Shown one piece after another: positions 112-12,093 of a stretch of DNA of 12,797 nt. Positions within the stretch are counted from its first letter, which is position 1, and the number at the start of each line of letters is the position of its first letter. Made by a program: the position numbers and the translations under genes. Location of the stretch: contig DAOVVV010000052.1 in NCBI GenBank assembly GCA_030637025.1, forward strand, positions 1 to 12,797, read 5' to 3'. The notes beneath the pieces were generated by a model. That model worked only from the letters and a program-made list of their open reading frames with translations, was not told where the DNA came from and did not search any database. This DNA comes from JAGLHV01 sp023143305 [NCBI: Clostridia bacterium]. Its GTDB lineage: Bacteria; CBDUZB01; JAGLHV01.

Positions 112-137
112 AGGCAAAAACATCGGGACAGTAGTGC
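1..137 (+). mobile_element. Right end of an insertion sequence (IS4-like), boundary inferred
   Basis: After the transposase stop at 111 there are about 25 non-coding bases (AAGGCAAAAACATCGGGACA and a few more). Then sequence homologous to the G/C-run palindrome at 5462-5505 begins at about 137. This suggests that the element ends at about 134-137 and that the bases ending in CATCGGGACAGTAGTG are its terminal inverted repeat. The left end lies outside the window, so the inverted repeat and the target duplication cannot be verified here. Confidence 0.4.
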
Positions 138-166
138 CCTAACCCCCTTTTTCAAAGGGGGGAAAA
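137..166. repeat. G/C-run palindrome, copy 1 (interrupted on its left side)
   Basis: CCCCCTTT (143-150) pairs with AAAGGGGG (154-161) around a three-base loop. The same palindrome occurs in the opposite orientation at 5471-5490. The outer arm present in that copy (CCCCC preceded by AAATAAAT) is missing here, where IS-like sequence abuts. The palindrome lies 3' of the metallopeptidase gene, but no T-run follows the stem on the minus strand, so I do not call it a terminator. Palindromes of the form CCCCCTTTGAAAAAGGGGG are, from memory, common intergenic repeats in many bacteria. Confidence 0.65.
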
Positions 167-180
167 CTATTGTTTAACTG

Positions 181-300
181 TAGTCTTTGTGTCTTTTATC
201 TTTGTCTTTTGTTTTTATCTGTTGTCTGTAATCTGTAATCTATGGACTATGGACTGTCGACTATGGACTTTTGTTTCTTTTTTTAATCTATGGACTATTT
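181..300. repeat. Tract of degenerate 7-nt tandem repeats 3' of the metallopeptidase gene
   Basis: At 240-269 the unit CTATGGA/CTGTCGA is repeated about four times in register. It is flanked by a T/G-rich tract (181-239) made of TTTGTCTTTTATC-like and TCTGTAA units and by a further CTATGGA at 287-296. The tract begins directly after the stop codon of the minus-strand metallopeptidase gene (303). The 30 bases at 240-269 recur exactly at 6727-6756 and with two differences at 10189-10218. No coding potential is seen. This tract, the palindrome and the IS end account for the whole gap from 1 to 302. Confidence 0.85.
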
Positions 301-302
301 AT

Positions 303-3032
303 CTATTTCACCACCACTATCTTTTTCGTGTCTTTAAATCCCGGAGCTATTATATGCACTAGATATAACCCACTGGCTACGAATTTACCGTCTTTATTTC
401 GGCCATCCCAGTTTATTGACCCGGCGCCCTCAGATTCTTCCCCATCCACCAGTACACAAACCAATTCTCCGGCTATATTATAAATTTTAATACTCACCCG
501 GCCGGCCTGCAACAACTCATATCTGACCGTAACCGGTCTATCTTTTACGGGATTAAAAACATTATTCCAGAGAATGAGTTTGTTAGCAGATGCTGAGGTT
601 TTTAAATAATTAGAAGGCCCTGTTAAATAATTATTTCCCCATTTATTTTTAAGGCTAATTTCTACATATATTGTTCCTACTGCCGGATAATTTGTCTTTA
701 TATCGCCTAAACTGATTATCCCGTCTATTTCCCCTTTATCCCCATCCAAAGTCAATCCGGAAGTATCAATTCCCCTGGTTAAAATATATCCCGTCTTGTC
801 CTTTACCCGGATATTTTCAATACTCTTAGATCCTATTTCCACCAAACCGGAAAGAATAACCGTCTGACCCTCCCCTCTGCTAATCTGAATACCCCCGGGT
901 ATAAATTCTACCTGTAAGGTATACGGTTTCCATCTGGTAGAAGTAGAGGAAATCCCTGAAACCATAATATAATAAAAATCCGATTGACTAATTCTACTAT
1001 TAATCTCCAGAAGAGGAGAAGGTGTGTAATAATTATAATAACCATCCCAAAAGACCTCATTCGGCCCCTGATAATCAATCCAGTTATGGTCAGAATCAAA
1101 AAGAGATATATCAAAAGCATAATATAAGTTTCCGTACCAAGGATCCGTATTATAAAAAGGCAATCCCAGAGAAATACGAATATTTCCCGGCGCAGCACAA
1201 ACACGATAATAATCACAATCACCGCTATAGGAAATAAAAGAACTGAGGGTCTCTCCTGTTTTTATATCGTAACTTTCAGAAAAAGCATTATTAGGCTCAT
1301 AAGTGTCATTCTCGTCGGCAACAGGATCATTCATATCTTCCAAAGTAATTCCGTGATTGGCAAAAGCCAGCTCTATTACCATCTGATTAGGTGTCCCGTT
1401 AGAAAGGTCGTTATCATCATCATCCGCAAGTAAAATCGCCTGCAGGCCGGTCTGAAAACTATCAGGCTGGAAAAACAAAGAATCAAAAATTGTTTCATTA
1501 ACCGTAGTAGAACTTACTACTGTTCTAAACTCCCACAATGCCCCGGAGTAAATTAAACTATCATCGTGTACTTCTCCTACCCAGTGATCCGGATACTTTT
1601 TAAAGTCAGCTGATAAATCCCTCTGATAAACAACAGGTAAGACCCAATCTCCGATAACAGAATCCTCCGTATAAGTAGCTGCAAAATAATCTGCTAAGGC
1701 CTCATCCATTGCCCCTGACTGCCCATAATAAACTAACTCATAAATATGATGAACTACCGCATGGGTATATTCATGATAAATTACATCACAGGCGTGAGCA
1801 AAATTTCCAAATACCCCTCCTCCATCACCAAAATAAATATTACCGTTAGAAGGGTCGTAATAACAATTAAACGCCCCATCCGATCCAGCCCCATTATTAT
1901 GTACCCAGGCCTCCATCTGATAATCTACCCCAGTAAAGGAACTCACTACCTGGCTAAAATAACGGTGAATAGAGTTTACATGATAAAACATATTTACTTC
2001 AGATGTTTCACTATCTGCGGGCAAATAACTCCAGGTAAAACTGGCTACATCCGTAGAAATAGATACCTCTGGCTGGTCATCATTATAAACCTTAACATAC
2101 GGGCCGGTTAATTGGGAAGTAAAACTGGTTCCGCTGCCTTCACTGTAATATCCATTCTCATCCGTAATTTCTGTTATTGTACCATCTACAACAACATATT
2201 CCCCGGCAAACGGCCTACTTACTAAAGTATCATCTCCATCATTAGGAAAAATCATACCTGAAACCGTGCCAAAACGCAGATTATTATATTTAAATAAAAT
2301 TTCACCCGTATTTGCCTCTACAAAACAAATCCAATCCCCTAAAGGATTGTTTAAACGTATCCTTACCTTCCAGGCTAAGTAATATTTTTCTTTTTCCCGG
2401 TCAGGAAAGACCACCAGTATACTCTGAGGGGTTTTAAGCGGAATGGATTTAATTTGCAAGTCACTTTTTACTAAAGCTAAGGCTTTTTCTTTAGAAATAC
2501 CCGGTTTTGTTTCTAAATCAATCTCGGTAAAATAAGAGGAATTCACTGCCACAATACTATTATCCGCTAAAAGATGAACTAAAACCTTTCCTCTTTCTAC
2601 CGGAATCCCCTGGTAGGTTTGCCTGTATTTAATGTGCCGGTATCTTTTATGCCGGCTTGTTTCTTTTAAATTAAGATTATCAAAATTTATTCTAAATAAA
2701 TCTTTATTTTTAATAATGAAGTTTTTCGCTGCTTCTTCCGGCTTTCCTGCCTGAGGCAATGTTTTATAACCCCAGATACTTTTTATCGCCCCGGTTAAGT
2801 GATTATACTGCATTTTCCATTTTTTACCGTATTTTTCCCTAAAGCGAGTACAGTGCGCAAAGCAGTTGAGATAGGCCTGACTGTTTTTATAAGCGGTTTT
2901 TTTTGCAGTCTGAGTAATAATTTGCCTTTTGCTTTTTTTATATGTTCCGGGAACAATCAAAGCTAATGTTTTTCCTACAGGCAAAAACAGCAGTAAAAGC
3001 AATAAAATAATAATTTTATTTATTCTCTTCAC
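303..3032 (-). CDS. Secreted thermolysin-like (M4/M36-type) zinc metallopeptidase with PPC and FlgD-like C-terminal domains
   Basis: This 909-residue exported endopeptidase has a signal peptide at residues 1-24, with a long Leu/Ile core. An FTP/PepSY-type inhibitory propeptide covers roughly 90-250. The catalytic domain covers roughly 255-565: H420-E-Y-T-H424 is the zinc-binding HExxH, and E444 in GAMDEALADYF is the third ligand, 24 residues after the first His as in thermolysin. His489 in GEVHDD probably matches the thermolysin transition-state His231. NGTPN (545-549) followed by AFANHGI is common in this clan. Residues about 577-710 look like a PPC domain (starting DTYEPNN), 713-810 is an Ig-like region, and about 825-909 is a FlgD-like/T9SS-like module also present in the propeller protein. 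The start is GTG with only a weak Shine-Dalgarno (AAAGAG). The codon before it is a stop, so no earlier start exists in frame. It begins 28 nt after birA and may be co-transcribed with it. M4 versus M36 is not settled. Confidence 0.9.
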   Translation of the reverse strand: MKRINKIIILLLLLLFLPVGKTLALIVPGTYKKSKRQIITQTAKKTAYKNSQAYLNCFAHCTRFREKYGKKWKMQYNHLTGAIKSIWGYKTLPQAGKPEEAAKNFIIKNKDLFRINFDNLNLKETSRHKRYRHIKYRQTYQGIPVERGKVLVHLLADNSIVAVNSSYFTEIDLETKPGISKEKALALVKSDLQIKSIPLKTPQSILVVFPDREKEKYYLAWKVRIRLNNPLGDWICFVEANTGEILFKYNNLRFGTVSGMIFPNDGDDTLVSRPFAGEYVVVDGTITEITDENGYYSEGSGTSFTSQLTGPYVKVYNDDQPEVSISTDVASFTWSYLPADSETSEVNMFYHVNSIHRYFSQVVSSFTGVDYQMEAWVHNNGAGSDGAFNCYYDPSNGNIYFGDGGGVFGNFAHACDVIYHEYTHAVVHHIYELVYYGQSGAMDEALADYFAATYTEDSVIGDWVLPVVYQRDLSADFKKYPDHWVGEVHDDSLIYSGALWEFRTVVSSTTVNETIFDSLFFQPDSFQTGLQAILLADDDDNDLSNGTPNQMVIELAFANHGITLEDMNDPVADENDTYEPNNAFSESYDIKTGETLSSFISYSGDCDYYRVCAAPGNIRISLGLPFYNTDPWYGNLYYAFDISLFDSDHNWIDYQGPNEVFWDGYYNYYTPSPLLEINSRISQSDFYYIMVSGISSTSTRWKPYTLQVEFIPGGIQISRGEGQTVILSGLVEIGSKSIENIRVKDKTGYILTRGIDTSGLTLDGDKGEIDGIISLGDIKTNYPAVGTIYVEISLKNKWGNNYLTGPSNYLKTSASANKLILWNNVFNPVKDRPVTVRYELLQAGRVSIKIYNIAGELVCVLVDGEESEGAGSINWDGRNKDGKFVASGLYLVHIIAPGFKDTKKIVVVK

Positions 3033-4147: not shown

Positions 4148-4163
4148 AGACTGTGTCGTAATT
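4148..4163 (+). repeat. Dispersed 16-nt motif AGACTGTGTCGTAATT (MITE/IS-end-like)
   Basis: The motif matches, with one difference, the right arm of the MITE-like element on the other strand at 9997-10012, and more loosely its left arm at 9870-9885. Here it stands next to the REP-like hairpin, so the two may travel together or this may be the remnant of an element end. The motif resembles terminal repeats of some transposons, but I cannot assign a family. Confidence 0.5.
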
Positions 4164-4175
4164 CTGATTTTTATG

Positions 4176-4243
4176 TGGTAGCCGCAGGCTTCAGCCTGCG
4201 TTCTCGACGGAGAAATTCCGCAGGCTAAAGCCTGCGACTACCA
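4176..4243. repeat. REP-like nested double hairpin between nadC and birA
   Basis: Two 25-base arms (4176-4200 and 4219-4243) are inverted copies with two mismatches. Each arm is itself a palindrome (CGCAGGCT, two bases, AGCCTGCG). The 18-base connector contains a third small stem, TTCTC-GACG-GAGAA. The element can therefore fold either as one long hairpin or as separate hairpins, the layout of REP/BIME elements. It is GC-rich in an AT-rich setting. It lies after nadC and before birA, where it could stabilise or attenuate a shared transcript. It lacks a T-run, so it is not a classical terminator. No REP-associated transposase is in the window. Confidence 0.85.
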
Positions 4244-4264
4244 AAAATTTGTCTTTTATCTTTT

Positions 4265-4316
4265 CCAACCAATAAAACCAATAAAACCAATCTAAACCAA
4301 TTCAACCAATTAAACT
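4265..4316. repeat. Tract of 9-10-nt tandem repeats (AACCAATAA type) 3' of nadC
   Basis: AACCAAT occurs five times with 9-10-base spacing, ending 17 bases from the nadC stop codon. On the transcribed strand the unit reads ATTGGTTTT. Related, more degenerate tracts lie just 3' of the membrane protein gene (6781-6820) and of PEP-CTERM gene 1 (8139-8168). No coding sense is seen. Confidence 0.75.
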
Positions 4317-5461: not shown

Positions 5462-5505
5462 AAATAATTTCCCCCTTTGAAAAAGGGGGGTAGGGGGATT
5501 TATTT
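5462..5505. repeat. G/C-run palindrome, copy 2 (apparently intact)
   Basis: CCCCCTTT (5471-5478) pairs with AAAGGGGG (5482-5489). Alternatively, the longer left arm AAATAATTTCCCCC can pair with GGGGGATTTATTT (about 5493-5505), so two folds compete. It lies 3' of the TPR lipoprotein gene on the minus strand. It is an inverted copy of the element at 137-166. The rest of the 344-base gap (5255-5598) holds the nadC promoter and otherwise AT-rich sequence in which I see nothing else. Confidence 0.7.
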
Positions 5506-6600: not shown

Positions 6601-6780
6601 ACTATTACTTGACTACTTGTGACTATTTATTAATACTATTTGCCATTCGCCATCTTTTGTCTTTTGTTTTGAATTTAGTATTTTGGATGTAGAATTTGTC
6701 TTTTGTCTTTTATCTGTTGTTTTTGTCTATGGACTATGGACTGTCGACTATGGACTATCCTTTGCCGTTGTCCTATCTTT
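6601..6780. repeat. Tract of 7-nt tandem repeats between membrane protein and TPR lipoprotein genes
   Basis: This holds the same elements as 181-300: the CTATGGA/CTGTCGA core (6727-6756, identical over 30 bases to 240-269), a TTTGTCTTTTATC-like tract, and heptamers of the TTGCCAT/TCGCCAT and GACTATT kinds. It fills most of the 367-base gap between the two genes. Confidence 0.85.
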
Positions 6781-6820
6781 TAACCAATAAAACAAATCTA
6801 AACCAATACAACTAACTAAT
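6781..6820. repeat. AACCAATAA-type repeat tract 3' of the membrane protein gene
   Basis: There are four degenerate units (AACCAATAAAACAAATCTAA and following) with 9-10-base spacing, beginning about 20 bases after the stop codon on the transcribed strand. The tract is related to the one behind nadC at 4265-4316. Confidence 0.6.
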
Positions 6821-6848
6821 AGAAAAATAATTAAAAAATTATTTTTCT
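6821..6848 (-). terminator. AT-only perfect palindrome over the stop codon of the membrane protein gene (possible weak terminator)
   Basis: AGAAAAATAATT (6821-6832) and AATTATTTTTCT (6837-6848) are perfectly complementary around AAAA. The palindrome includes the TAA stop codon at 6839-6841. The stem has almost no G/C, so it would be a weak hairpin. It could end transcription inefficiently or protect a 3' end. No better terminator is visible after this gene. Confidence 0.35.
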
Positions 6849-7705
6849 TCTATATCCTTATTCATCAAAAACAAGGTTGTCACCGAAGTAGTAACTATAT
6901 AATTAGCGAATAAAGAAACAATAATCCCCAAAACCAAAATACAAAGGGCTATCTCCGGAAAAAACTGCCTCATTAAATAAGGAATCTTCCATTTTACGAT
7001 AGACATTAAGAAAATTAAAAAGACAGGTATTGCCACCAACATAAAAGTAGGAAATAAAAATTTCTTAGTCATAAAAAAACTTCTCTTTATCGCCTGCCAG
7101 GCATTTTTGCCTTCAATCATTACCACCGGGGCTGTATAAGCAAAAAACATTTCTATCAAAATACTAATTAAAATACTGCCGGTAAAAGCCATTCTGAATA
7201 TATTCCCCCGGTTAAAAAAACCTGTTTTTTGAAAATAATATTTCAAAATAAAAAATTTCGGCAATCTAAAAACAATAGACACCAATATAAAAGCTACTAT
7301 CCAAACAGCCACCAGGGTTACATATTTTTTAATTGACTTCTTTAAATTACTGCGCACGCCGGGAAAAATATTTTTATTTACCTGATAAATCATACTTACC
7401 ATCATTCCGGTCATCCAGGACCCAATGAAAAGGGAAATTATTATATTTCCATAATTAAACAACCGAGGCATAAGCAAAAAATTAGCCGGATAATGCAAGT
7501 ATAATTCTCCAAAAAAAGCTCTAATCGGCGGGGCTAAAACAATGGAAAAAGGAAATTGAGTAGCCCAAAATAATAAAAGAAGCAACGAACCCTGGAAAAA
7601 AGCAACTACACCAAAGGGCACAAGAACACGAAAATGATTACCCATAATTTTAAAACTTGTTTTCCACACCAAAATAATTAATTTCAATTGCTTTAAAATA
7701 ACCAC
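6839..7705 (-). CDS. Six-helix integral membrane protein of unknown function
   Basis: The 288-residue protein has six likely transmembrane segments, at about residues 25-48, 84-107, 127-146, 172-196, 218-238 and 251-282. The loop VVMIEGKNAWQAIKRSFFMTKKF between helices 4 and 5 resembles a loop seen in uncharacterised membrane families related to the membrane domain of glycerophosphodiester phosphodiesterases (EG-x2-x-x-AI+RS pattern). There are no catalytic motifs, so it is probably a helper or transport-related membrane protein. The start is GTG at 7705, eight bases after a perfect AGGAGG. A consensus promoter stands about 50 bases further up, so expression is probably constitutive and strong. 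It is a single-gene unit: the PEP-CTERM unit before it ends in a terminator and a repeat tract follows it. I do not recognise a named gene. Confidence 0.85.
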   Translation of the reverse strand: MVILKQLKLIILVWKTSFKIMGNHFRVLVPFGVVAFFQGSLLLLLFWATQFPFSIVLAPPIRAFFGELYLHYPANFLLMPRLFNYGNIIISLFIGSWMTGMMVSMIYQVNKNIFPGVRSNLKKSIKKYVTLVAVWIVAFILVSIVFRLPKFFILKYYFQKTGFFNRGNIFRMAFTGSILISILIEMFFAYTAPVVMIEGKNAWQAIKRSFFMTKKFLFPTFMLVAIPVFLIFLMSIVKWKIPYLMRQFFPEIALCILVLGIIVSLFANYIVTTSVTTLFLMNKDIEEK

Positions 7706-7886: not shown

Positions 7887-7997
7887 ACCTTCTTTACTTT
7901 ATTCCTTTAAAGTTTAAAGTCTCTCCTGTTGTTCATCCATTCTAACCCTAAAAAATCAAACCTATTTTCTTTTATTTCCTTATTGTAGTTACTCCTT

Positions 7998-8032
7998 TTA
8001 CCTGTCCGCCGTTAGTTTGCAGGATGAAGCTA
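7998..8032 (+). repeat. 35-nt dispersed repeat, copy A (TGTCCGCCGTTAGTTTG core)
   Basis: These 35 bases match the minus strand of 9946-9980 at about 30 positions. The identical core is TGTCCGCCGTTAGTTTG. The G/C content of the core stands out from its surroundings. Copy B lies inside the MITE-like element, so copy A may be a fragment of a second, decayed element. Confidence 0.7.
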
Positions 8033-8977: not shown

Positions 8978-9037
8978 TTTTTTGTCTTTTATCTGAGGGC
9001 TATCAACTTTTGTTTAGTTTTTTGTCTATGGACTATT
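8978..9037. repeat. Short 7-nt repeat tract overlapping the stop codon of PEP-CTERM gene 2
   Basis: TTTGTCTTTTATCTG, TTTTGTTTAG and TTTGTCTATGGACTA resemble the tracts at 181-300 and 6601-6780 but are shorter. The TAG stop codon of PEP-CTERM gene 2 (9033-9035) lies inside the last CTATGGACTA, so the repeat reaches the coding region. Confidence 0.65.
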
Positions 9038-9650
9038 TCTTCTTCCTCAATCCAACCAAACCTAATAAACCCGTCCCCAAAAGTAACATACTCGCCGGCT
9101 CAGGAACCGGAGGACAAGAAGAAAGATGACAATTCCCATCAAATAAAGCATAACTATCTTCATCATTACCAGTATTTACACCTAATTCAAAAATATATTT
9201 ACCCCTAATATTTGAACCTGCTGTCCACTCCCATTCAAACCAACCCGATTCCATAACATCCCTCTCACAAAGAATTCCAACATAATCGCTATCAACCCCA
9301 AATATCTTCACCCACAAAGAAGTATTACTACCACTCCCAAATGCTGTGAATCCGAATAAAGTATCACCTTTATTTAATTCAATGGTCTGACGAAGAATAG
9401 TAGAACTTCCCACCCCGTCTGTTTTTAGTAAAGCAAAATAGTTTCCTCCCACTTCTTTGGGAAAATAATCTACACCATTTGATGAGTATTGGTTAACAAC
9501 TTCGGCAGATCCGCCTACAGGAACATTTTGTGTCCACCCATAAAAATCTCCTGTTTCAAAACCACCGTTTACCAATAAAGCACTTGCCGGTAATTGAACT
9601 AAACTTACTGCCAGAACGGCCAGAACTAATACTAATATCCCCCTTTTCAT
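9033..9650 (-). CDS. PEP-CTERM sorting-signal surface protein 2 (carbohydrate-binding-like fold)
   Basis: The 205-residue exported protein has a signal peptide at 1-24 (ending PASA). The mature domain opens LLVNGGFETGDFYGWT, the usual beginning of jelly-roll domains of the CBM4/9 or DUF642 type in PEP-CTERM and cell-wall proteins, and stays beta-rich throughout. The C-terminal tag has PEP at 183-185, helix ASMLLLGTGLLGLVG and tail LRKKK. It is probably sorted by an exosortase and may bind extracellular polysaccharide. The binding role is inferred from the fold style only. The start ATG has AAAGGGGG six bases upstream. It has its own promoter. No terminator is seen, so transcripts may continue into PEP-CTERM gene 1, 229 bases further on. 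The tag-coding DNA is nearly identical to that of gene 1 although the mature domains are unrelated. Confidence 0.93.
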   Translation of the reverse strand: MKRGILVLVLAVLAVSLVQLPASALLVNGGFETGDFYGWTQNVPVGGSAEVVNQYSSNGVDYFPKEVGGNYFALLKTDGVGSSTILRQTIELNKGDTLFGFTAFGSGSNTSLWVKIFGVDSDYVGILCERDVMESGWFEWEWTAGSNIRGKYIFELGVNTGNDEDSYALFDGNCHLSSCPPVPEPASMLLLGTGLLGLVGLRKKK

Positions 9651-9841: not shown

Positions 9842-9868
9842 AGTATCAATCAATGTCACTCCTGCGAA

Positions 9869-10013
9869 CAGATTGTGTCACAACTCCATTTTTTGAGGCA
9901 ATTGTAGGGGCGACATTCATGGCGCCCGTCGAAAAAGGTATTCATTAGCCCAATCCTCCAAACTAACGGCGGACAAGTAAATTGGGCAACTACATCAATT
10001 ATGACACAGTCTG
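9869..10013. mobile_element. MITE-like element of about 145 bp with imperfect terminal inverted repeats
   Basis: CAGATTGTGTCACAACT (9869-9885) is the inverted counterpart of 9997-10013, with 14 of 17 bases matching. Inside are a GC-rich hairpin (9908-9916 with 9919-9927: GGGCGACAT, TC, ATGGCGCCC, one mismatch) and the 35-nt repeat copy B (9946-9980). There is no transposase. A 71-codon minus-strand frame crosses the whole island but is explained by these palindromes. The 584-base gap 9651-10234 otherwise contains the PEP-CTERM gene 2 promoter, the small palindrome at 9826 and the repeat tract at 10081. The element call is an inference from structure. Confidence 0.5.
9946..9980 (-). repeat. 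35-nt dispersed repeat, copy B
   Basis: This is the inverted copy of 7998-8032, with about five differences in 35. It sits within the MITE-like element. Confidence 0.7.
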
Positions 10014-10080
10014 GAAAGTGGGAATCATTCCCCAATAAAAAAAGCGGAAGAGCTATTTCTAACCCTCCCACCCCTCATTA

Positions 10081-10234
10081 ATTTTTTGTCTTTGACTTTA
10101 TTTTTGTCTTTGTTTTTGTTTTTTGTTTTTGTTTTTTATTTCTTTAATTCATAACTTATAACTATTAACTCATAACTGTAGTTTCTGTCTATGGACTATC
10201 GACTGTGGACTATGGACTTTTGTTAGTCTGTTAT
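10081..10234. repeat. Low-complexity and 7-nt repeat tract 3' of the propeller gene
   Basis: It begins with TTTTTGTCTTTG/TTTTTG units (10081-10145), continues with NATAACT heptamers (about 10150-10178) and ends with the CTATGGA/CTGTGGA core (10189-10218, 28 of 30 bases as at 240-269). It stops directly at the stop codon of the propeller gene. On the transcribed strand it is A-rich and has no hairpin. Confidence 0.85.
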
Positions 10235-11932
10235 CTATTTCAAAATTGCCGCCTTCCTTACATTTTTTATCCCCGGACCATCAATATAAAGAACATAAAC
10301 ACCCGAAGCAACTACAGTTCCTTCTGTATTCTTACAATCCCAGATAATAAAATCTTCTTCCCCATCAGTTTCTTTATTTTTTTCCCAAACCAGCTGTCCC
10401 CGTAAAGTATATATTTTTACTTTAACCGTTCCGGCATGGGCAGCATCAAAATGTATAGTCAGTCCTTCTCCTTTGTTGGGATTTACATATCCTTCTTCTC
10501 CGCCCTGAATCCTTATCCATCCAGCTGTTTTAATTTCAAATCCACCAACTATCGTTCCACTTAATCCATCAACATTAGTCACAGTTATATCCCTTTTTCC
10601 TATAACAGCTTTTTTTGCCAGGGTAATATTTATCTTAAGTTCAGTTGCATTAATAAATTCTGCTGAATTAACCGTCCCCCCGGTACCACTAAAAACTACC
10701 TCTGCTCCGGAAAAAAAGTTTGACCCGAATATAGAAACATCCAGTGTCTCTCCCTGATTGGCAAATGACGGAGAAACCGAAAAAATCTCCGGGGAAAGAC
10801 CATTATATTTTATAGTAAAATAATCATTATTAGTCATTGCGTTATAACTATACCCTGTAACAATAATATTTCCTTGTCCGTCTATTGCAACTCCATAAGA
10901 ACCATCTCTATTAGTCCCGCCATAGGCAGCTGAGGAAACAACAACAAGATTTTGATCATATTTTATGGTAAAATAATCAGTATCATTCAATTCTTTACGA
11001 CTCGCCCCGCTAACAATAATATTCCCTTGTTCATCAACATCTACTCCATAAGCATAATCATAGTTATTACTACTCCCGTTATAGCTTGTTGAGCAAAGTT
11101 GACCGAGATTTTGGTCATATTTTATGGTGCAGTAATCAAAACCTGTTGTTCCATTATAACTAAATCCGGTAACAATAATATTGTTATTACTATCTACTGC
11201 TATACCTTGAGCAAAATCAAAAGTAGACCCGTTATAAACAGTAGAACAAACTTCATTAAGGTCTTGATCATATTTTATGGTAAAGTAATTACTATCACTA
11301 CACCCGGTAACAATAATATTTTCCATGCTGTCTACAGCTACTGCTTGCGCAGAATCATTACCGATTGAAACATAGGCCACCGAGGAAAGAACAACTAAAT
11401 CTTGATTATATTTTATGGTAAAATAATCATCGTCTGTTCCATTATTACTATATCCGGTAACAATAATATTTCCAACCCCATCGACCACTATTCCACTAGC
11501 ATAATCATTACCCCCTCCATCATAGGTTACCGAAGAAAGAACAACTAAATCAGAATCATATTTTATGGTAAAATAATCATTTCCCGAGACAGTACTAGAG
11601 CTGGTTCCGGTAACAAAAATGTTTCCCCCATCATCTACCGCCACCCCATAAGCACAATCACTATTCCCCCTATCATAAGCTGCGGAACAAAGCTGATTAA
11701 AATTCCGGTCATACTTTATGGTAAAATAATCATCATTACTACTACCGGTAACAATAATATTTCCTTCCCCATCAACAGCCACTGCCCAGGCACGATCATT
11801 CCCTGCTCCGGCATAAGCTACCGAAGATAGGGGAATTAAACTCCCTTCTGCCCAGACTTTAATAGCTTTAAAAAGAAAAATAGTTATAACTATCAAGCTT
11901 ACTCTCAAAAACTTTAAATTTCTTTTCCTCAT
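10235..11932 (-). CDS. Secreted seven-bladed SBBP beta-propeller protein with TIG and FlgD-like C-terminal domains
   Basis: The 565-residue protein has a signal peptide at 1-29. Seven repeats of about 47-52 residues start near 36, 83, 133, 183, 230, 281 and 333. Each has the form AxGVAVD-x2-GNIIVTG-xS-xn-DYFTIKYD, the SBBP (beta-propeller) repeat style, and seven copies fit one closed propeller. Residues about 380-465 form an IPT/TIG immunoglobulin-like domain (SPSFANQGETLDVSIFGSNF). About 470-565 is a FlgD-like/T9SS-like module with VKVKIYTLRGQLVWE and VVASGVYVLYI, matching the end of the metallopeptidase. The role is probably extracellular binding or a surface structure. No enzyme motif is seen. 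The ATG at 11932 follows GAGGAAG by about eight bases. The DNA of the repeats is also alike: TTTTATGGTAAAATAATCA-like stretches recur every 138-159 bases on the plus strand. Confidence 0.9.
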   Translation of the reverse strand: MRKRNLKFLRVSLIVITIFLFKAIKVWAEGSLIPLSSVAYAGAGNDRAWAVAVDGEGNIIVTGSSNDDYFTIKYDRNFNQLCSAAYDRGNSDCAYGVAVDDGGNIFVTGTSSSTVSGNDYFTIKYDSDLVVLSSVTYDGGGNDYASGIVVDGVGNIIVTGYSNNGTDDDYFTIKYNQDLVVLSSVAYVSIGNDSAQAVAVDSMENIIVTGCSDSNYFTIKYDQDLNEVCSTVYNGSTFDFAQGIAVDSNNNIIVTGFSYNGTTGFDYCTIKYDQNLGQLCSTSYNGSSNNYDYAYGVDVDEQGNIIVSGASRKELNDTDYFTIKYDQNLVVVSSAAYGGTNRDGSYGVAIDGQGNIIVTGYSYNAMTNNDYFTIKYNGLSPEIFSVSPSFANQGETLDVSIFGSNFFSGAEVVFSGTGGTVNSAEFINATELKINITLAKKAVIGKRDITVTNVDGLSGTIVGGFEIKTAGWIRIQGGEEGYVNPNKGEGLTIHFDAAHAGTVKVKIYTLRGQLVWEKNKETDGEEDFIIWDCKNTEGTVVASGVYVLYIDGPGIKNVRKAAILK

Positions 11933-12045: not shown

Positions 12046-12093
12046 CTCCAAGCTATAATTCATAATTTATAACTATAGACTGTATAGTATCTC
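12046..12093. repeat. Short 7-nt repeat tract between sugar transferase and propeller genes, with a small hairpin
   Basis: TTCATAA, TTTATAA, CTATAGA and CTGTATA follow each other as degenerate heptamers. ACTATA (12072-12077) and TATAGT (12083-12088) form a small stem with a five-base loop. On the minus strand this lies just after the stop codon of the sugar transferase. The remaining bases to 11933 show no gene and no convincing promoter for the propeller gene. Confidence 0.5.

What the first reader, a model, noticed from the sequence alone, without database searches (positions are those of the whole stretch)
181..300. Seven-nucleotide tandem repeat cassette attached to 3' ends of genes
Degenerate heptamers (CTATGGA, CTGTCGA, NATAACT and a T/G-rich companion) occur at 181-300, 6601-6780, 8978-9037, 10081-10234 and 12046-12093. 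Each lies 3' of a minus-strand gene, usually starting within a few bases of the stop codon; the 6601-6780 tract lies behind the 9-nt tract and AT palindrome. A 30-base block is identical at 240-269 and 6727-6756, and the 10189-10218 copy differs at only two positions. Uncoordinated slippage would not keep copies this alike, so a copying or conversion process, or a function at transcript 3' ends, seems likely. Heptameric short tandem repeats are known from heterocystous cyanobacteria, but a link to gene 3' ends would be worth describing.
Basis: partly seen in the sequence, partly recalled or inferred. Interest (0 to 1): 0.65.

Follow-up and report, generated by a model that had tools for sequence, protein, structure and literature searches.

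The report
Heptamer repeat arrays anchored at stops
Seven-letter DNA repeats in this bacterium, and in scattered bacteria of several other phyla, tend to begin right at the ends of genes and to point the same way, which extends a little-known placement rule reported earlier only for G-rich repeats and still unexplained.

Summary
The repeats are real, though two of the five stated tracts are weak. All window genes lie on one strand, so the window alone cannot show a 3'-end link; comparative data can.

In 118 loci from Bacteroidota, Cyanobacteriota, Omnitrophota, the window's genus and a few others, CTATGGA arrays lie within 30 nt after a stop codon in sense far more than in antisense (54:2). 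Arrays of other units follow the same rule: the strand with a motif near RGTNANT reads away from the neighbouring gene, close to stops and, less safely, close to starts; the bias is gone further out. In stretches mostly not chosen for arrays, sense-after-stop is 27 against 13.6 expected (sd 3.0). A TAG stop is often itself in register with the array (33 of 47). In Pedobacter orthologues copy number and unit differ between close species.

Rehm et al. 2015 already reported this placement for G-rich heptamers and discussed G-quadruplexes. Of my arrays near one stop, 137 of 167 have no GGG on either strand, so quadruplexes cannot be the general cause. Known kind, new variant, mechanism open. Best guess: 7-nt expansion renewed at gene edges, a frame-closing filter, and copying of cassettes.

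The parts
181..302 (-). Heptamer cassette behind the M4-peptidase gene 303-3032; in sense: stop, ATAGTCCATAG, A-rich stretch, TAGTCCATAGTCGACAGTCCATAGTCCATAG, then ATTACAG and ACAAAAG-like units
   Evidence: same cassette at the orthologous place in G019, 9-mers there in G020
240..269 (+). 30-mer of CTATGGA/CTGTCGA units, identical to 6727-6756
6653..6760 (-). Heptamer tract (CTTTTGT-like and CTATGGA units), separated from the stop of gene 6839-7705 by a 9-mer tract
6782..6819 (-). 9-mer tract (AACCAATAA-like), like that at 4267-4315, between the heptamers and the stop
9026..9035 (-). One CTATGGA unit directly at gene 9033-9650; the TAG stop is in register (TAG-TCCATAG in sense)
   Evidence: too short for the lag-7 test
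10081..10178 (-). T/G-rich companion (in sense ACAAAAA-like) and ATAACTN units of the tract behind gene 10235-11932
10189..10218 (+). 30-mer of CTATGGA-type units, two differences from 240-269; 16 nt from the stop of gene 10235-11932
12046..12093 (-). Weak ATAACT-like tract 3' of gene 12111; not accepted as an array here
   Evidence: not found

Best explanation
The tracts are degenerate heptanucleotide simple-sequence arrays, a class known from cyanobacteria, Beggiatoaceae and Xanthomonas. Shown here: a period of 7; a strand-specific motif; a place next to gene edges with the RGT strand reading outward; loss of that polarity beyond about 30-60 nt; turnover of copy number and unit between close species; and, in the window's genus, copying of about 88-nt cassettes between loci. 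Inferred: units are gained in 7-nt steps at the gene-proximal end, where a TAG stop often serves as first unit and older, more degenerate units are pushed outward. Selection then favours arrays whose sense reading closes the frame (TAGTCCA repeated three times gives TAG in all three frames), so that an array reaching into a gene end only replaces the last codons and the stop. Left unexplained: the weaker polarity of units without stop codons, and the polarity near starts.
For: Period 7 dominates: 244 intergenic arrays at lag 7 (181 at lag 14) against at most 23 at any other lag from 4 to 15. Sense after stop within 15 nt: 77 against 24.6 expected (sd 4.1); antisense 10 against 24.7. Sample mostly not chosen for arrays: 27 against 13.6 (sd 3.0), 0 of 2000 permutations reach it. 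Polarity fades with distance. TAG stop in register in 33 of 47 TAG cases; TAG is the stop of 42 of 91 array genes but 200 of 677 genes overall. Stop-bearing units are more polar than stopless ones after an independent stop (61:8 against 31:15, Fisher p=0.008). Pedobacter: array supplies the last four residues and the stop in at least 9 of 31 rows of one gene, with 2-13 copies and TAGTCCA or TAGTCCG homogenised within a species. The first 14 nt of arrays behind stops match their own consensus better than the last 14 nt (0.80 against 0.71; better in 33, worse in 12 of 53). Cassette copying.
Against: Units without a stop codon are still polar after stops (32:14 cross-validated), and arrays 16-60 nt before starts read outward 34:6, which a frame-closing filter does not predict. 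In the sample not chosen for arrays, stop-bearing units are not more polar than stopless ones (11:5 against 13:4). Behind independent stops the array need not close any frame, yet it is sense 68:14. The sharper proximal end may only reflect the abrupt coding boundary. No mutation was watched.
Confidence: 0.4

Rival explanations
1. The arrays are a functional 3'-UTR element: back-up stop codons in all frames, or a site for an RNA-binding protein or a transcript end.
For: Sense polarity directly after independent stops 68:14 and 24:9; stop-bearing units 61:8; in Pedobacter gene A the array lies between the stop and a terminator-like hairpin, seen by eye in several orthologues.
Against: Many orthologues have no array; arrays also lie between divergent genes and show outward polarity near starts; many units have no stop; Rehm et al. 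found no regulatory role for their repeats. Terminator-like hairpins were found at 6 of 101 array genes and 47 of 563 others, with a detector that misses some.
Confidence: 0.2
2. The arrays are the ends of small dispersed inverted-repeat elements (array, core, inverted array) that fill intergenic regions; polarity relative to genes follows from the element.
For: Adjacent arrays converge 59 times, diverge 5 times and agree 19 times, in tandem, divergent and convergent regions alike. In Saprospiraceae genome G014 19 copies (85-100% identity) of array-hairpin-spacer-array lie dispersed.
Against: The two arms often carry different units; arrays alone in their region are also outward (stop 70:21, start 49:21); the window's tracts are single-armed, all in one orientation; a strong hairpin lies in 6 of 31 gaps only. 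No transposase or target duplication was looked for.
Confidence: 0.2
3. Repeats are added outward from gene edges by a dedicated DNA process with RGTNANT-like specificity, comparable to telomeric repeat addition.
For: Outward polarity at both gene ends that fades with distance; converging pairs in the orientation of fused ends; units without stops included.
Against: No enzyme, no free DNA ends known there; local unit turnover in Pedobacter looks like ordinary tandem duplication; the start-side signal is partly open to an ORF-calling artefact.
Confidence: 0.1
4. G-quadruplex formation selects the place and polarity (the setting in which Rehm et al. discuss G-rich heptamers).
For: Units with GGG next to one stop have it in the sense strand 28 times and in the antisense strand 2 times.
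Against: 137 of 167 arrays near one stop have GGG on neither strand; those of clear polarity still read outward 105:15. In AGTCCAT the outward strand is the C-richer one.
Confidence: 0.03

Closest known systems
GGGAATC / GGGGA(C/T)T heptamer repeats of Xanthomonas and Nostoc PCC 7120 (Rehm et al. 2015, PMC4692102; abstract, sections 13, 15, 16 and passages read)
   Same: Seven-nt units, intergenic, within 50 bp of a stop on the sense strand or within 50 bp of a start on the antisense strand, some overlapping the stop, inverted converging pairs, length varying between close species
   Different: Their units are G-rich and discussed as quadruplexes; most units here have no GGG; here a TAG stop in register, cassette copying, and a wider list of phyla
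TAACTGA direct repeats of Beggiatoaceae, Cyanobacteria and Bacteroidetes (MacGregor 2015, PMC4679880; abstract, sections 3, 10, 23 read)
   Same: Intergenic heptamer arrays in scattered phyla, often mixed with other heptamers; as the reverse complement of an AGTTATC array it fits the outward rule before starts
   Different: There mostly just upstream of starts and read as ribosome or regulator sites; here mostly behind stops
STRR sequences of heterocystous cyanobacteria (passage in PMC2670836; older papers recalled, not read) and long simple sequence repeats (Mrazek et al. 2007, seen only as cited in PMC4679880)
   Same: Tandem 7-nt units, commonest long repeat class in many genomes, function unknown, slippage proposed
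   Different: No placement or polarity rule in what I saw
REP/BIME palindromes (recalled, not read)
   Same: Dispersed, extragenic, often 3' of genes, in inverted pairs
   Different: Short palindromes, not heptamer arrays

Membership tests
Heptanucleotide simple-sequence repeats (STRR / LSSR class) | Tandem units of 7 nt beyond chance | tested here: met
Heptanucleotide simple-sequence repeats (STRR / LSSR class) | Mainly intergenic | tested here: met
   lag 7: 1.78 intergenic arrays per kb against 0.10 in ORFs
Heptanucleotide simple-sequence repeats (STRR / LSSR class) | Copy number varies between close relatives | tested here: met
   Pedobacter orthologues
G-quadruplex heptamer repeats (Rehm et al.) | Unit with a G-tract of three | tested here: not met
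   137 of 167 arrays near one stop have GGG on neither strand; CTATGGA has none
G-quadruplex heptamer repeats (Rehm et al.) | Sense after stop, antisense before start | tested here: met
   start side less safe
TAACTGA repeats (MacGregor) | TAACTGA unit just upstream of starts | tested here: not met
   window units are CTATGGA-type behind stops
Inverted-repeat mobile element with array ends | Converging arrays around a core in the window | tested here: not met
   window CTATGGA matches all on one strand; met in G014
Inverted-repeat mobile element with array ends | Target-site duplication and a transposase | not tested
   not looked for

The most novel reading that the evidence does not exclude
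Bacterial heptamer arrays are laid down outward from gene edges by a dedicated, sporadically distributed DNA process with RGTNANT-like specificity, a chromosomal analogue of telomeric repeat addition; the quadruplex and ribosome-site readings of earlier papers would be special cases of one rule.
Probability: 0.1. Interest if true: 0.88.

Novelty: new variant of a known kind. Interest (0 to 1): 0.52.

Why it matters
The placement of heptamer repeats next to genes has been discussed as quadruplex regulation in Xanthomonas and Nostoc. The same rule for many units that lack G-tracts, with the stop codon often as a unit of the array, takes that away as a general explanation. It also points to culturable hosts (Pedobacter, Mucilaginibacter, Anabaena) in which the old question why bacterial repeats so often come in sevens can be tested.

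Tried and rejected
Independent slippage alone: rejected for the window's genus, because 88-nt cassettes with non-repeat parts recur at 88-96% identity. A special cross-phylum word: weakened. AGTCCATAGTCCATAG is in 3 of 383 genomes outside the window's genus, 1 of 147 other Bacteroidota and 4 of 145 other Cyanobacteria. The built-in control, the word read backwards, is itself present in 1 genome, in 3 (18, 25 and 109 copies) and in 3, so single heptamers are rare and this one is not unique. All 17 genomes match, but they were chosen for it; the control also matched in 3 of them (4, 1 and 5 copies).

Terminators: detectors were faulty; that also failed to list a hairpin visible by eye, so the lack of association is inconclusive. 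A hairpin in every gap: 6 of 31 only. Independent polarity test in G603 and G584: 7 arrays of clear polarity, uninformative. Annotated Gloeothece plasmid, 200 kb: 12 intergenic arrays, mixed, too few. Viral vehicle: 4 stretches in viral contigs; no match in phages or plasmids, but a low-complexity filter may hide such queries. RNA fold of 181-302, minus strand: better than shuffles (z -3.9) but weak (-10.1 kcal/mol).

Limits: genes come from a greedy longest-ORF script, not annotation. The motif was trained on arrays near stops, so polarity counts and part of 104 lean on it; searches use the literal word and one search is cross-validated. Arrays of unclear polarity were dropped: 61 of 381, 31 of 123. 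The unchosen sample rests almost wholly on G019 and G002 (86 of 92 arrays), and its G014 contig had been seen in a hit list. Groups were set by hand from record titles.

Full report
The window. Nine genes, all on the minus strand: by Pfam an M4-type peptidase, a BirA-like ligase with HTH domain, a quinolinate phosphoribosyltransferase (nadC-like), a TPR protein, one without match, two PEP-CTERM proteins, a beta-propeller repeat protein and a sugar transferase. The heptamer words are far above chance (14 matches against 0.90). Two 30-mers are identical and a third differs at two positions. Two of the five stated tracts are weak.

The genus. The window's own assembly is not held. G001 matches two blocks of the window at 97% and 100%. 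Three of three same-genus genomes carry the 24-mer with up to one mismatch; 38 of 38 more distant ones do not. G009, reached through a locus titled CSMAG_496, has the same contig coordinates as G019 and is taken as the same genome. An 88-nt query from the first tract has 72 matches in G009 and 14 in G001, many of about 84 nt at 88-96% identity. Of 50 distinct arrays from the genus, 9 lie inside called ORFs; among the rest a minus-strand stop lies to the right of the CTATGGA array in 29, within 80 nt in 24 (median 24 nt), and a plus-strand start in 8, within 80 nt in 5. Orthologous 3' ends differ: behind the peptidase gene the window and G019 have heptamer cassettes and G020 a 9-mer tract; behind nadC the window and G001 have 9-mers, G019 and G020 heptamers; behind birA the window has none and G020 has an array. 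Between the window and G001 the 9-mer tract behind nadC differs by more than 100 nt while the flanks are nearly identical. The place stays and the repeats turn over.

Other phyla. Titles name Bacteroidota, Cyanobacteria, Omnitrophota, Endomicrobia, Acidobacteria, Bacillota and others. In these loci 128 arrays were found, 20 inside ORFs; of 91 intergenic ones with both neighbours, a minus-strand stop lies within 30 nt of the right end in 48 of 55 cases (median 3 nt), a plus-strand stop within 30 nt of the left end in 2 of 33. Sense against antisense within 30 nt after a stop: Bacteroidota 27:2, Cyanobacteria 10:0, Omnitrophota 8:0, window genus 7:0, others 2:0, out of 127 arrays in that call, 16 of them inside ORFs.

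The general rule. Whatever the sequence, lag 7 and its multiple 14 stand out: 244 and 181 intergenic arrays against at most 23 at any other lag from 4 to 15 (the loci were chosen for arrays). In a sample mostly not chosen for arrays, lag 7 leads in G019 (54 against at most 8) and in G002 (80 against 25 at lag 8), not in G014, where lag 8 gives 16 and lag 7 gives 10. Sense arrays behind stops share a motif near RGTNANT; without any TCCATAG unit the orientation is still coherent (score -7.58 per array against -7.91, sd 0.04, for random orientation). When place and polarity are permuted within intergenic regions, 24.6 (sd 4.1) sense-after-stop arrays within 15 nt are expected and 77 seen; antisense 24.7 and 10; without query-bearing arrays 14.1 (sd 3.2) and 38. 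In five genomes, 1.02 Mb, 92 arrays of clear polarity, within 30 nt: sense after stop 27 (13.6 expected), antisense after stop 10 (13.8), antisense before start 18 (11.0), sense before start 3 (10.9); G014, G004 and G008 contribute 6 of the 92 and show no stop-sense case. Pooled by distance, outward to inward: 116:15 within 30 nt of stops, 21:23 beyond; 73:20 within 60 nt of starts, 27:25 beyond. Cross-validated: TCCATAG type 38:1, other stop-bearing units 42:9, stopless units 32:14 (in Anabaena the stopless units are 15:11). After an independent stop, where ORF calling cannot mislead, 68:14 in the chosen loci and 24:9 in the other sample. The start side is less safe, because open CT arrays can be called as ORF extensions, though 34:6 holds at 16-60 nt.

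Stop codons. A TAG stop is in register with the array in 33 of 47 cases (6.7 expected); TGA shows no peak, TAA a small one (12 of 46). TAG ends 42 of 91 array genes and 200 of 677 genes overall. In 10 of 90 arrays the repeat clearly reaches into the CDS. In Pedobacter, gene B was found in 52 of 79 genomes and gene A in 79 of 79 (30 loci of each aligned with the query loci). In gene B at least 9 of 31 rows have an array whose first units encode the last four residues (VHSP, VRSP or VYSP) and the stop, where array-free rows end in other ways; copies run from about 2 to 13. In gene A the stretch behind the stop holds TAGTCCA, TAGTCCG or TAGTCTT units, or 7/8-nt units of another kind, in some rows and none in others, with a terminator-like hairpin next to it in several, seen by eye.

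Pairs and elements. Neighbouring arrays in one region converge 59 times, diverge 5 times, agree 19 times. G014 holds 19 copies of an array-hairpin-spacer-array element. Elsewhere a strong hairpin in the gap is the exception (6 of 31, about 1 expected).

Prior art. MacGregor 2015 (PMC4679880; abstract, sections 3, 10, 23 read) describes TAACTGA heptamers near starts in Beggiatoaceae with cases in Cyanobacteria and Bacteroidetes, and cites Mrazek et al. that heptanucleotides were the most abundant class in most genomes, perhaps through polymerase slippage. Rehm et al. 2015 (PMC4692102; abstract, sections 13, 15, 16 and passages) found for GGGAATC and GGGGA(C/T)T the same placement, with converging pairs, and discussed quadruplexes; they found no regulatory role. 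My arrays reproduce their result (GGG in the sense unit 28, in the antisense 2) and extend it to units without GGG (105:15 outward). In searches I saw no paper that states the rule for such units; I saw listings there, and the library lacks most subscription journals.

Verdict. A real repeat of a known class with a placement rule wider than described. I favour 7-nt expansion renewed at gene edges with a frame-closing filter, plus cassette copying in this genus, at 0.4. Placement and turnover are shown; growth direction, filter and copying agent are inferred.

Noticed in passing
window 4148-4247: GC-rich inverted element (CGCAGGCT...AGCCTGCG) behind nadC; listed with many further copies at 79-89% identity in G019 and some in G020 and G001.
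   Followed up: no
window 137-164 and 5468-5495: Inverted copies of a CCCCCTTTGAAAAAGGGGG-type hairpin block, also present in G019 and G020 and sometimes beyond the heptamer tract.
   Followed up: partly
window 4267-4315 and 6782-6819: 9-mer tracts (AACCAATAA-like) behind genes; between window and G001 the first differs by more than 100 nt with nearly identical flanks. In sense they too contain GGT.
   Followed up: partly
window 9854-10026: Dispersed block with several copies in G019 and G020 at 76-85% identity; its part 9946-9994 is inverted at 7984-8032.
   Followed up: no
window 10235-11932: Gene with repeats of about 138-159 nt (beta-propeller, SBBP) and many diverged relatives in G019 and G001.
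   Followed up: no
G002 and G014 samples: Period-8 arrays are the second class in G002 (25) and the first in G014 (16 against 10 at lag 7).
   Followed up: no
L351-L369 (G014): Dispersed element of array, GAGTGCCTTTCGGCACTCG-type hairpin, spacer and inverted array, 19 copies at 85-100% identity; left array length very variable.
   Followed up: partly
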